Positions 2,653 to 58,643 of a stretch of DNA of 64,000 nt are shown one piece after another. The notes under the pieces are model-generated. The model ran no database searches. It was given only the letters and a program-made list of their open reading frames with translations, and was not told where the DNA came from. The position numbers were made by a program, and so were the translations under genes. This stretch comes from Solirubrobacterales bacterium (GTDB lineage Bacteria; Actinomycetota; Thermoleophilia; Solirubrobacterales; 70-9), in the NCBI GenBank assembly GCA_020438355.1, contig JAGQUT010000009.1, forward strand, positions 1-64,000, given 5' to 3'. Positions within the stretch are counted from its first letter, which is position 1, and the number at the start of each line of letters is the position of its first letter.

Positions 2653-2910
2653 ATGAGCAATGAACAGGAGCAGTCGCCGTCCGCAAGAATCGGAGCCCTC
2701 GCCCAGGAGTTGATGGAACAGGTTGAAAGGGACACCCCCGGGGCGCGACTCGACCAGCTTGTGATCTCGGCGGTCCTCAGCGAGGACGCGGGAATCGACG
2801 AGCAGACCATGCACGTTCAGCTGGTCTCGGACTCCTCCGACCCCCTCTCGGTTGTCGGCCTCCTCACCGTCTCCCTGGAACTGGCAAAGGGCCAGCTAAC
2901 CGGCGAATAG
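2653..2910 (+). CDS. Small conserved-looking hypothetical protein (85 aa)
   Basis: Encodes an acidic soluble protein with a helical amino half (IGALAQELMEQVERDTPG) and a beta-rich carboxy half (MHVQLVSDSSDPLSVVGLLTV). I do not recognise a family. Codon usage is normal and the ATG start is reasonable. Its last codons and stop (GGC GAA TAG) lie inside a structured repeat that recurs at 49512-49664, where it again ends a small orphan gene with Gly-Glu-stop. Confidence 0.7.
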   Translation: MSNEQEQSPSARIGALAQELMEQVERDTPGARLDQLVISAVLSEDAGIDEQTMHVQLVSDSSDPLSVVGLLTVSLELAKGQLTGE

Positions 2911-3054
2911 CCCGGGCGGCGCCAGGAACCACCAGTCGTCCGCTGGCGGCGTCGACGGTCGGAAACGGCAGCTCAAGTACCCGCGTACGATCGCGGCCAT
3001 TGCCGGCTCTTACTCCTCGCCAGCGAACGGCTGGAGGCCCCTGGCATCCACCCG
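2901..3054 (+). repeat. Structured dispersed element, copy 1
   Basis: About 154 bp that aligns with 49512-49664 with roughly 85% identity by hand, including a near-identical 26-nt head and a 36-nt tail with one mismatch. Three hairpins are shared: CGCCAG/CTGGCG (2920-2925 with 2943-2948), CCGCG-TACGAT-CGCGG (2981-2996) and CCAGC-GAACG-GCTGG (3020-3034). It starts within the last codons of the upstream gene and provides its stop codon. It could be a 3'-UTR RNA element, a terminator or a REP-like mobile repeat. Confidence 0.8.
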
Positions 3055-3292
3055 ACGGTTGAACCTGCTCTCCGGGACACGTTGCAGGCATCAGAGCCAA
3101 ACGAGATGACCCAAATGGCACTTATCGAAATAAAAAGGTCATTTCGACCAACCGAACGTCGACCAGGACCAGTCCAGCTCAAGACTGGCGGGGGTTGGTG
3201 TACCGCCGACCGGAGCCAGTTCATCCATCCCGGACCTTATGAACTGGCGGGTTAGGTATGGAGGGCGGGTTGGACCCCGCCCGACTTGGTGA
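3055..3292. other. Gene-free hairpin-rich intergenic region
   Basis: No credible coding frame. It holds serial perfect inverted repeats: TCGAAAT/ATTTCGA (3125-3131 with 3141-3147), CCAGTC/GACTGG (3169-3174 with 3183-3188), CCAGTTCAT/ATGAACTGG (3216-3224 with 3239-3247) and GGGCGGG/CCCGCCC (3263-3269 with 3276-3282). The last is just downstream of rpsD. The region between convergent transcripts probably carries terminators for both strands, though none has a long T-run. Confidence 0.6.
3263..3282 (-). terminator. Probable rpsD terminator hairpin
   Basis: A perfect 7-bp GC stem with a 6-nt loop begins about 10 nt past the rpsD stop on the minus strand. It has no clear U-tract, as is common in high-GC actinobacteria. 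Confidence 0.5.
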
Positions 3293-42214: not shown

Positions 42215-42220
42215 GCATCA

Positions 42221-42340
42221 TCCCGGACCGGCCTGAGGGGGTCCGGGACGGCAGTACTTCCCGAAAACCGTCGCTGCGCTCCTCATTCCGGAGGTTTTCG
42301 GGAAGCACCACGGGTGGGCCATCTTTGGGAGGGCCACCCG
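42221..42340. terminator. Three consecutive hairpins after ahcY
   Basis: TCCCGGACC/GGTCCGGGA (42221-42229 with 42240-42248), a perfect 13-bp stem CTTCCCGAAAACC/GGTTTTCGGGAAG (42257-42269 with 42293-42305), and CGGGTGGGCC/GGCCACCCG with one bulge (42311-42320 with 42332-42340). Located between two convergent genes; likely terminator plus RNA 3'-end structures. Confidence 0.7.
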
Positions 42341-42368
42341 ACGCCCTGCCGCGATCACATGAGCCGGG

Positions 42369-49062: not shown

Positions 49063-49521
49063 ATGGGCAAGGAAAACTTTTCAGAGAAGGCAGGCCAGGC
49101 TTACTCGACAGTGCGCGACAACCAGCATGTCCGCCGACTGATCGAGGATGAGGAGCTTCGCGCGAGTCTGATCGCCGCTGCCCTCGCCGGCCGCAAGGCG
49201 CTCCAGCGCATCCAGACGAACCGAAGCTCGGCTGTCGAATCGGTGACCCAGGACAAGCGCGTCAAGAAGGAACTTCAGAGCGCCGCCGACTCCCTCCGCG
49301 ATGCTGCCGAACGCATCCGTGAGCCCAAGCGGAAGAAGCGTCACCCGATCCGGAACATCCTTCTGGTTGGTGTCGTTACCGGTGGCCTGGTCCTCGTCTT
49401 CAGCGAGTCGGCCCGCAAGAGCCTGCTCGACGCGATCTTCGGTGCCGAAGAGGAGTTCGTCTACACCTCGACCACCAGCACCGAAACCGCCCAGACCAAC
49501 GGCACTCCAGTCGGCGAGTAG
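49063..49521 (+). CDS. Hypothetical single-pass membrane protein (152 aa)
   Basis: N-terminal helical region rich in Arg/Lys/Glu (about 1-90, probably amphipathic or coiled), a basic patch 'REPKRKKRHP', one TM helix (about 97-113: NILLVGVVTGGLVLVFS) and a short Thr-rich tail ending Val-Gly-Glu. No family recognised. Its last codons and stop lie in the second copy of the structured repeat, as for the orphan gene at 2653-2910. Confidence 0.72.
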   Translation: MGKENFSEKAGQAYSTVRDNQHVRRLIEDEELRASLIAAALAGRKALQRIQTNRSSAVESVTQDKRVKKELQSAADSLRDAAERIREPKRKKRHPIRNILLVGVVTGGLVLVFSESARKSLLDAIFGAEEEFVYTSTTSTETAQTNGTPVGE

Positions 49522-49664
49522 CCCGGGCGGCGCCAGGGGCCACCAGCCGCCCGCTGGCTTCGTCGGCGGCCAGGAATGACAGCTCACGTACCCGCGTACT
49601 ATCGCGGTCATTCCCGGCCTGTCTGCTTGCCAGCGAACGGCTGGAGGCCCTTGGCATCCACCCG
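49512..49664 (+). repeat. Structured dispersed element, copy 2
   Basis: Partner of 2901-3054, same orientation relative to the upstream gene. Hairpins retained: GCCAG/CTGGC (49532-49536 with 49554-49558), CCGCG-TACTAT-CGCGG (49592-49607) and CCAGC-GAACG-GCTGG (49630-49644). In the second hairpin the only difference from copy 1 is in the loop. Ends 55 bp before typA. Confidence 0.8.
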
Positions 49665-49719
49665 CTGAGGGTTCAGCGAACTGCCCGGCCCGGGGCTCTC
49701 GCGTAGACTGCTCCGTCCT

Positions 49720-51552
49720 TTGGCCCGCAGGGATGACATACGCAATGTGGCCATCGTCGCTCATGTCGACCATGGCAAAACCACTCTCGTAGACGCGATG
49801 CTCTGGCAGTCTGGCGCGTTCCGCCAGGGCCAGGACGTCAACGAACGGGTCATGGACTCGATGGACCTCGAGCGCGAGAAGGGCATCACGATTCTCGCCA
49901 AGAACACGGCGGTCCAGTACGGCGACGTCAAGCTGAACATCATCGACACCCCGGGCCACGCCGACTTCGGTGGCGAGGTCGAACGCGGCCTCACCATGGT
50001 CGACGGGGTGGTGCTGCTGGTCGACGCGTCGGAGGGCCCGCTGCCGCAGACCCGTTTCGTGCTTGGCAAGGCTCTCGAGGCGGGGTTGCCGGTGATCCTC
50101 GTCGTCAACAAGGTCGACCGGCCCGACGCCAGGATCGGCGAGGTCGTCGACGAGGTCTACGAGCTCTTCATGGATCTTGGTGCGGATGGTGAGCAGATCG
50201 AGTTCCCGATCGTCTACACGAACGGCAAGAAGGGCTGGGCGTCGCTGGAGGAGGGGGTCGAAGGAGAGGACCTCAAGCCGCTCCTGGACCTGATGGTCGA
50301 ACACATTCCCGCTCCGGAGTACGAGGAAGGGCACGTCCTTCAGGCCTGGGTAACCAATCTCGACGCCTCGCCGTACCTGGGAAGGCTCGCGATCTGCCGG
50401 GTGATCCAGGGCACGATCAAGGCCGGGTCCCAGGTCGGATGGTGCCGTGCCGACGGGTCGGTCGAGAAGGCCAGCGTCTCGGAGCTCTTCGTTACCGAAG
50501 CTCTTGAGCGCGTACCCGCGAAGGAAGCCGGGCCGGGAGAGATCATCGCCGTGGCCGGCATCCCCGAAGTGACAATCGGCGAAACCCTTTCCGACACCGA
50601 GAACCCCGACCCGATGCCGGTGATCAAGGTCGACGAGCCGTCGCTCTCGATCGTCGTCGGAATCAACACCTCCCCGCTGGCCGGTCGTGACGGAGACAAG
50701 GTCACCGCCCGCCAGATCCAGAACCGTCTCGATCAGGAACTGCTTGGCAACGTCGCCATCCGCGTGCTGCCTACCGAACGGCCCGACGCATGGGAGGTAC
50801 AGGGCCGGGGAGAGCTACAGCTTGTGATCCTCCTCGAGATGATGCGTCGTGAAGGCTTCGAGCTGACCGCCGGCCAGCCGCGGGTTCTGACCCGCGAGGT
50901 CGACGGCGAAATGCACGAGCCGATGGAGCGCCTGGTGATCGATGTCCCGGAGGAGCATGTTGGCGCAGTCACCCAGCTGCTCGCCGCCCGCAAGGGCCGG
51001 ATGGAGAACATGACCGCCCAGTCCGACAACTGGACCCGGCTCGACTACGTGATCCCGGCCCGCGGACTGGTCGGTTTCAGGACCGAGTTCCTGACCGAGA
51101 CCCGCGGCACCGGCATCCTTCACTCGATCTTCGAGGGCTGGGAGCCGTGGGCGGGGGAGATCACCACCCGGGCGACCGGTTCACTGGTTGCCGACCGGCA
51201 GGGAACGACTGCCAGCTTCGCCCTTTTCGGACTCCAGGAGCGAGGAGCGATGTTCGTCGGGCCCGGCGAGGATGTCTACGAGGGAATGATCGTCGGCGAG
51301 CACGCCCGCTCGAACGACCTGGACGTGAACGCGGTCAAGGAGAAGCAGCTGACCAACATGCGTTCATCGACCTCGGACGTACTGGTTCGTCTGACCCCGC
51401 CGAAGCCACTGACGCTCGAGTCGGCGATCGAGTTCCTGCGCGCCGACGAGTGCGTCGAGATCACCCCGAACTCGATTCGTCTGCGCAAGGTCGACCTCGA
51501 CCAGAACGAACGGGTCAAGGCGGCCCGCAAGATCAAGAACCTTTCCCGCTGA
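49720..51552 (+). CDS. typA: Ribosome-associated GTPase TypA/BipA
   Basis: 610 residues, TTG start (MARRDDIRNVAIVAHVDHGK). EF-G-like GTPase involved in 50S assembly and stress or cold growth. G1 'AHVDHGKTT', G2 'EKGITI', G3 'DTPGHADFGGEV', G4 'NKVDRPDA'; then domain II, and the TypA-specific C-terminal domain with 'RGTGILHSIFEGWEPW' and 'RKVDLDQNER'. Length is standard. A hairpin follows the stop. Confidence 0.96.
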   Translation: MARRDDIRNVAIVAHVDHGKTTLVDAMLWQSGAFRQGQDVNERVMDSMDLEREKGITILAKNTAVQYGDVKLNIIDTPGHADFGGEVERGLTMVDGVVLLVDASEGPLPQTRFVLGKALEAGLPVILVVNKVDRPDARIGEVVDEVYELFMDLGADGEQIEFPIVYTNGKKGWASLEEGVEGEDLKPLLDLMVEHIPAPEYEEGHVLQAWVTNLDASPYLGRLAICRVIQGTIKAGSQVGWCRADGSVEKASVSELFVTEALERVPAKEAGPGEIIAVAGIPEVTIGETLSDTENPDPMPVIKVDEPSLSIVVGINTSPLAGRDGDKVTARQIQNRLDQELLGNVAIRVLPTERPDAWEVQGRGELQLVILLEMMRREGFELTAGQPRVLTREVDGEMHEPMERLVIDVPEEHVGAVTQLLAARKGRMENMTAQSDNWTRLDYVIPARGLVGFRTEFLTETRGTGILHSIFEGWEPWAGEITTRATGSLVADRQGTTASFALFGLQERGAMFVGPGEDVYEGMIVGEHARSNDLDVNAVKEKQLTNMRSSTSDVLVRLTPPKPLTLESAIEFLRADECVEITPNSIRLRKVDLDQNERVKAARKIKNLSR

Positions 51553-58562: not shown

Positions 58563-58643
58563 CCAGCCAAAGGCTCCGCCGGTCATCGAGATGCCAGTTG
58601 TTGGCGATAATCGCCAACAATCCGCATCTCACTGTTCTCCAGG

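What the first reader, a model, noticed from the sequence alone, without database searches (positions are those of the whole stretch)
2901..3054. A ~154-bp three-hairpin element occurs twice and ends two unrelated orphan genes
Positions 2901-3054 and 49512-49664 align at about 85% by hand. Each starts inside the last codons of a small orphan gene, supplies Gly-Glu-TAG, and keeps three stem-loops. In the CCGCG-TACKAT-CGCGG hairpin only the loop differs, and the 36-nt tail has one change. Head and tail are the most conserved parts. Proximity to the stop in both cases suggests a 3'-UTR regulatory RNA, a specialised terminator or a REP-like repeat that settles at gene ends. An alternative is that the minus strand encodes a short peptide: both copies read 'ASGRLV.PGAARA' in one open frame.
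Basis: partly seen in the sequence, partly recalled or inferred. Interest (0 to 1): 0.78.

Follow-up and report, generated by a model that had tools for sequence, protein, structure and literature searches.

The report
Mobile palindrome lodged at stop codons
The two copies in the window belong to a family of about 145-base DNA palindromes, found in one uncultured actinobacterial genus, that insert themselves, always the same way round, immediately behind the stop codons of ordinary genes; none of the transposase types tested that usually move such repeats was found in genomes that carry it.

Summary
The element is not three hairpins in two copies. It is one ~145-nt imperfect palindrome (core 2911-3054 and 49522-49664) with about 14 places in this genome, up to ~50 in a relative, and matches in 13 of 18 genus genomes but 0 of 214 other genomes of the order. 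Among strong copies, 49 of 56 begin within -2 to +10 nt of a same-strand stop codon (null 7.6%); the other end abuts an opposing stop only twice. TAG/TAA stops are strongly enriched. Filled, empty, nested and remnant sites among relatives, plus clustering of copies by genome rather than by host gene, show recent mobility. Stems covary massively: 30 of 44 pairs show double changes, 0/500 shuffles. But G-U pairs are no commoner than A-C mismatches (29:45, against 208:8 in the genus' SRP RNA), so the structure is held as a Watson-Crick (DNA or both-strand) palindrome, not as a sense RNA. RAYT (Y1), reverse transcriptase and IS110 genes were not found in carrier genomes. Best reading: a new REP/ERIC-class mobile palindrome targeted to stop codons, probably recognised as a folded DNA strand by an unidentified enzyme. 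Stop-adjacent TAG-tagged REPs are known (PMC3733652), so this is a new variant of a known kind.

The parts
2908..3056 (+). Copy 1 of the palindromic element; model core 2911-3054, preceded directly by the TAG stop codon (2908-2910)
   Evidence: 155.6 bits; fold
2911..2946 (+). Copy 1, 5' outer arm of the long hairpin
   Evidence: consensus structure
2947..2955 (+). Copy 1, conserved left internal loop (CGGCGTCGA; family consensus CTTCGTC)
   Evidence: conservation line
2977..2988 (+). Copy 1, apical stem-loop GTAC-CCGC-GTAC, nearly invariant across the family
3008..3019 (+). Copy 1, conserved right internal loop (..TCCTCG)
3020..3054 (+). Copy 1, 3' outer arm of the long hairpin
2653..2910 (+). 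Host gene of copy 1: 85-aa protein, no Pfam match, orthologues in most genus genomes; the element starts at its TAG
49519..49668 (+). Copy 2 of the element; model core 49522-49664, preceded by TAG (49519-49521), followed by the frequent end CTGA
   Evidence: 160.4 bits; fold
49558..49564 (+). Copy 2, conserved left internal loop CTTCGTC
49588..49599 (+). Copy 2, apical stem-loop GTAC-CCGC-GTAC
49063..49521 (+). Host gene of copy 2: 152-aa protein, no Pfam match, conserved in the genus and mostly ending in TAG also where no element is present; upstream of an elongation-factor-like GTPase gene (49747-51552)

Best explanation
The feature is a non-coding mobile DNA palindrome of about 145 bp, a REP/ERIC-class repeat confined to one genus of Solirubrobacterales (relatives include Solirubrobacterales bacterium 67-14). 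It inserts immediately 3' of stop codons, preferably TAG or TAA, always with the same end towards the stop, so the host protein stays intact. SHOWN: multiplicity, mobility (empty, filled, nested and remnant sites), orientation and stop-codon adjacency, stem covariation in Watson-Crick pairs, conserved unpaired loops. INFERRED: the selected form is a folded DNA strand or cruciform whose conserved internal loops and apical GTAC stem are read by a structure-specific enzyme that copies the element into the DNA next to a stop codon. The enzyme is not identified; it is not a RAYT/Y1 transposase, an RT-based element or an IS110-type transposase. Effects on the host mRNA (a strong 3' hairpin that protects, terminates or changes decay) are likely side effects that help tolerance. 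At one pilus-operon gene the copy seems to have become a fixed, inherited part of the gene end.
For: Copy census: 14 places in this genome, ~50 in G014, 13/18 genus genomes, 0/214 others in the order; collection-wide exact core matches only in this group plus two Streptomyces core-only matches without the structure. Placement: 49/56 strong copies within -2..+10 nt of a same-strand stop against 7.6% expected, p~1e-47; opposite end near a stop 2/56 (the 49th copy, L008 at a rubredoxin TAA). 59 gene groups, stops TAG 40/TAA 10/TGA 9 against TGA 39/TAG 11/TAA 6 in the window, p 2e-9. Mobility: Hpt-gene site filled in G000, empty in G013/G010/G009; site of the window's first gene filled in G000 and by another subfamily in G010, empty in G001, G003, G008, G009, G011, G013; mIHF site filled in G000/G006, left remnant G009, right remnant G012, empty G013; nested insertions (L107, L024) and tandem copies whose stop-proximal member scores higher. 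Copies cluster by genome (47/93 nearest neighbours, 10.3 expected), rarely by gene (9/39). Structure: 30/44 pairs with double changes, 0/500 shuffles; 39/44 pairs with at least two WC types over 93 copies. DNA rather than RNA: GU:AC 29:45 against 208:8 for SRP RNA.
Against: No transposase or longer parent element with the same ends was found; Y1, RVT_1 and IS110 were absent from carrier genomes, but other transposase families were not tested. No target-site duplication could be recognised; only the mIHF site aligned well enough to look. Stop adjacency to nucleotide precision has no proven cause. The pilus-operon copies (L052, L105, L116, L132, L138) are inherited vertically with compensated stems, which suggests a host function there. 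Part of the compensation could come from copying whole palindromes or from templated arm repair rather than selection. The GU/AC test also allows selection on RNA of both strands. About 55 of 131 copies, mostly weak-scoring, are not stop-adjacent in the gene calls; about ten of them lie just behind an intrinsic terminator instead.
Confidence: 0.68

Rival explanations
1. A 3'-UTR regulatory RNA or unusual transcription terminator conserved because the transcript must fold.
For: Location directly behind the stop on the sense strand, very stable fold, conserved internal loops, one set of orthologous copies at a pilus-operon gene.
Against: G-U pairs are 1.4% of pair cells and not commoner than A-C, against 15.4% and 26:1 in SRP RNA of the same genomes. 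No U-tract terminator in either window copy; about ten copies sit behind an ordinary intrinsic terminator. Orthologous sites are usually empty in relatives.
Confidence: 0.13
2. A REP/REPIN family moved by a RAYT (Y1 tyrosine) transposase.
For: Palindromes at gene ends with TAG at one tip, arrays, lineage-specific amplification; GTAG REPs are known to supply TAG stops (PMC3733652).
Against: No Y1_Tnp match in any carrier genome; the only genus genome with one (G003) has no element. The base before TAG varies, and TAA and TGA also occur. Length is 145 bp, not 20-40 bp.
Confidence: 0.04
3. A fixed DNA site (cruciform or protein-binding palindrome) kept at the 3' ends of a set of genes by host selection and homogenised by gene conversion, not a mobile element.
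For: Same genes recur in different genomes (14 of 59 groups); WC-only covariation; within-genome similarity.
Against: Empty sites next to unchanged genes in close relatives, end remnants, nested and tandem insertions, and zero copies in five genus members.
Confidence: 0.1
4. Stem complementarity maintained by mutation (template switching between the arms) rather than by selection on structure.
For: Long palindromes are known to be corrected arm to arm (own knowledge); double changes far outnumber single ones.
Against: Such correction would also erase the conserved, non-complementary internal loops, which are instead the best conserved columns.
Confidence: 0.05

Closest known systems
GTAG- and CGTC-tagged REPs (Repetitive Extragenic Palindromes) and REPINs
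   Same: Palindromic, non-coding, multi-copy, at gene 3' ends; GTAG REPs often supply a TAG stop codon and lie <20 bp from ORF ends (PMC3733652). CGTC REPs also lack a dedicated transposase, and CGTC occurs in this element's conserved left loop.
   Different: 145 bp instead of 20-40 bp units; no GTAG tag; no RAYT; conserved internal loops at two levels of one long hairpin; family confined to one Solirubrobacterales genus; nucleotide-precise adjacency also to TAA and TGA stops.
ERIC / IRU / RU-1
   Same: Similar size (127 bp), imperfect palindrome, intergenic, co-transcribed with neighbouring genes (PMC2229807).
   Different: No TA-bounded terminal inverted repeat with TA duplication was found; no sequence relation; GC-rich.
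YPAL / RU-2 (Yersinia palindromic sequences)
   Same: ~168 bp, not A+T-rich, no TA at the tips, targets beside dyad symmetry, empty and filled sites (PMC2229807).
   Different: YPAL makes target duplications of 3-26 bp; none seen here. Unrelated sequence and taxon; stop-codon targeting not described in the text read.
Integron attC sites
   Same: Folded-DNA hairpins of 60-150 nt directly behind stop codons, sequence-variable stems, conserved unpaired bases (own knowledge).
   Different: Dispersed behind core genes in conserved synteny, not in cassette arrays; no RYYYAAC/GTTRRRY core sites at the ends.

Membership tests
REP/REPIN (GTAG class) | Tyrosine transposase (RAYT, Y1_Tnp) in the genome | tested here: not met
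   PF01797 absent in all carrier genomes; only G003 (no element) has one
REP/REPIN (GTAG class) | GTAG tetranucleotide at one tip | tested here: not met
   Base before TAG varies; TAA and TGA also occur
REP-like palindromic repeats in the broad sense | Many dispersed non-coding palindromic copies, mostly behind ORFs | tested here: met
MITE (IS630-type, as ERIC, RUP, Correia) | TA (or other) target-site duplication | tested here: inconclusive
   No duplication recognised at the alignable mIHF site; TA-containing stops are favoured, but the right end is mostly CTGA
MITE | Autonomous parent with the same ends | tested here: inconclusive
   Isolated ends seen in BLAST look like remnants, not paired ends around a gene; no exhaustive search for other transposases
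Structured RNA family (Rfam sense) | RNA-type covariation including G-U pairs | tested here: not met
   GU:AC 29:45 against SRP control 208:8
Structured RNA family (Rfam sense) | Match to a described family | tested here: not met
   No gathering-score match; only weak miRNA-precursor chance hits
Group II intron / retroelement derivative | Reverse transcriptase available in the genome | tested here: not met
   PF00078 only in G003, which has no element
Intrinsic terminator | GC stem directly followed by a T-run | tested here: not met
   No terminator-like site within either copy
Integron attC | R''/R' core sites and an integron integrase with cassette array | not tested
   Ends read by eye carry no RYYYAAC/GTTRRRY; the integrase was not searched

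The most novel reading that the evidence does not exclude
A mobile DNA element whose insertion machinery recognises translation stop codons, or the gene 3' end to the nucleotide, using a folded DNA strand and an enzyme outside the tested REP/RAYT, IS110 and reverse-transcriptase families. Several unrelated palindrome families of the same genus would share this stop-codon hot spot.
Probability: 0.3. Interest if true: 0.82.

Novelty: new variant of a known kind. Interest (0 to 1): 0.55.

Why it matters
If the stop-codon targeting is a property of insertion, it is a 'safe harbour' strategy in which a selfish palindrome lands at the least harmful nucleotide of a gene, repeatedly and in one orientation. 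Three usual vehicles (RAYT, RT, IS110) were not found in the carriers, so there may be an undescribed way of moving folded DNA. The G-U versus A-C comparison used here is a simple general test that separates palindromic DNA repeats from true structured RNAs, which covariation alone does not.

Tried and rejected
Rfam at gathering and at E<=5: nothing credible. Minus-strand peptide: rejected by lengths and stops. RAYT/REPIN: no Y1 transposase. Retroelement and IS110 vehicles: absent from carriers. Plasmid, phage and IMG/VR origin: no match. Streptomyces pattern hits L273 and L274: the 28-nt core only, no full covariance-model match at that place, taken as chance. Element supplying the TAG stop: not general, because orthologous genes without the element mostly end in TAG as well (window gene 49063-49521 and PntB). 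A search for a longer parent element relied on BLAST end pairs only. Gene calls in relatives are from a simple codon-usage finder written here, checked against orthologues at eight loci.

Full report
WHAT IS THERE. They are two members of a repeat family. A BLAST search of the window's genome gave nine places. A covariance model built without the TAG stop gave 14 places in this genome (several are listed twice there because the palindrome matches on both strands), about 50 in relative G014 and 11 in G009. A second model from 38 copies matched 13 of the 18 genomes of the genus and none of 214 other genomes in the order, spread over 53 other genera. An exact core pattern run over 84,980 species genomes matched only MAGs of Solirubrobacterales (67-14, HKST-UBA63/64/67, SSF62, SCN18_13_7_16_R1_B_68_13), plus two Streptomyces contigs with the 28-nt core but no surrounding structure. 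No match was found in IMG/VR, phage or plasmid collections.

SHAPE. Each copy folds as one long imperfect hairpin running from CCCGGGCGG at the 5' end to CCACCCG at the 3' end, not as three hairpins. The best conserved columns are unpaired: CTTCGTC opposite TCCTYG, and GCTCA opposite ATCGCGG, with an apical GTAC....GTAC. The stems vary freely but in step. On 38 copies, 30 of 44 pairs show changes on both sides, none of 500 shuffles comes near, and sliding the partners by one to three columns destroys the signal. On 93 copies, 39 pairs occur in at least two Watson-Crick types.

RNA OR DNA? In an RNA helix G-U is an accepted intermediate and A-C is not. The SRP RNA of the same 18 genomes shows this plainly: 15.4% G-U, 0.6% A-C, 208:8. 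The element shows 1.4% G-U and 2.2% A-C, 29:45, at a lower mean identity; on all 93 copies it is 49:86. The pairing is therefore kept as a Watson-Crick palindrome: in DNA, or in the RNAs of both strands equally. This argues against a sense-strand regulatory RNA as the selected form. No U-tract terminator is found in either window copy. The minus-strand reading frame is not conserved.

WHERE IT SITS. The 5' end abuts the stop codon of an intact gene on the same strand. Of 56 strong copies, 48 lie within -2 to +10 nt by automatic gene calls, and one more (L008, rubredoxin, TAA, distance 0) was missed by the gene finder. The null from the window's non-coding DNA is 7.6%, p about 1e-47. The 3' end lies near an opposing stop only twice, so orientation is fixed although the element is nearly symmetric. 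Host genes fall into 59 groups and include ordinary core genes: PntB, an mIHF-like S13-H2TH protein, rubredoxin, ribosomal protein S7, acyl-CoA dehydrogenase, an Hpt protein. Counting one copy per group, stops are TAG 40, TAA 10, TGA 9, against TGA 39, TAG 11, TAA 6 in the window, p 2e-9. About ten copies instead sit 63-82 nt behind the stop, just behind an ordinary intrinsic terminator.

IT MOVES. At the site of the window's first gene, G000 carries the element at the TAG and G010 carries a different subfamily behind a TAA, while G001, G003, G008, G009, G011 and G013 are empty. The Hpt site is filled in G000 and empty in G013, G010 and G009. The mIHF site is full in G000 and G006, reduced to a left end in G009 and a right end in G012, and empty in G013; the PntB site is full, remnant or empty in different genomes. 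Copies are nested (L107, L024) or stacked with the better-scoring copy next to the stop. On a tree of 93 copies, 47 have their nearest neighbour in the same genome against 10.3 expected, while only 9 of 39 copies at shared genes have it at the same gene. So the same stop codons have mostly been hit independently. The exception is a gene of a probable pilus operon, where five genomes share a vertically inherited, fully compensated copy.

HOW IT MOST LIKELY WORKS. Shown: a mobile, non-coding, oriented palindrome next to stop codons. Inferred: the folded DNA strand, with its conserved loops, is the substrate of an enzyme that places copies directly behind stops. The stop codon mostly predates the element: for the window's second gene, orthologues without the element also mostly end in TAG. 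The base before TAG varies and TAA and TGA occur, so the site is not a simple GTAG-type tag. Y1 transposase, reverse transcriptase and IS110 transposase were not found in carriers; other families were not tested. Whether adjacency comes from insertion or from selection is not settled. The window holds 51 non-coding, non-stop TAGs against 11 stop TAGs, so sequence targeting of TAG plus avoidance of genes would not give the observed concentration.

COMPARED WITH WHAT IS KNOWN. The nearest kind is the REP/ERIC/YPAL class. GTAG REPs are reported to lie within 20 bp of ORF ends and often to provide the TAG stop, and CGTC REPs lack a known transposase (PMC3733652). ERIC and YPAL are of similar size (PMC2229807). 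The present family differs in length, in conserved internal loops, in the lack of RAYT and of a recognisable target duplication, and in its taxon. It works like a REP or MITE, but the defining features tested for GTAG REPINs (RAYT, GTAG tag) are not met.

VERDICT. A real, new, genus-specific mobile palindrome family with unusually exact stop-codon placement: a new variant of a known kind, of moderate to good interest.

Noticed in passing
window 42215-42368: Another long palindrome lies directly behind the TAG stop of a gene ending ...[10 protein letters not shown]; the orthologous stop in G014 carries the present element instead (L148, TAG). Pieces of this second family recur in L055, L056, L025, L037, L084.
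   Followed up: partly
window 3175-3290: Hairpin of the type CCGGAGCC[arm]CATCC...[arm']GGCGGGT followed by GGAGGGCGGGTTGGACCCCGCCC; related copies with changed arms occur behind stops in G009, G011, G012, G013.
   Followed up: partly
L024 and L099 3' flanks; L109; L107; L219: Two further small palindromes with GTATAC and CTATATAG centres follow the element in a fixed order in G009, G012 and G015, making a composite of about 300 nt.
   Followed up: partly
L258, L238, L251, L252: A palindrome starting CTGCATGCCGTCCGG sits directly behind the rubredoxin stop in G011 and is also inserted inside the present element in G012 and G015.
   Followed up: partly
L052, L105, L116, L132, L138: At a gene upstream of a prepilin-peptidase-like gene the element overlaps the last codons and, in L116, the TGA stop lies inside the stem; these copies are inherited vertically in five genomes with compensated arms.
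   Followed up: partly
L169 (G014:C4:92000-96000), 1417-1800: Three tandem units of 123 bp made of element-like sequence, 96-100% identical.
   Followed up: no
window 58563-58643: A strong 81-nt palindrome fills the space between two convergent genes.
   Followed up: no
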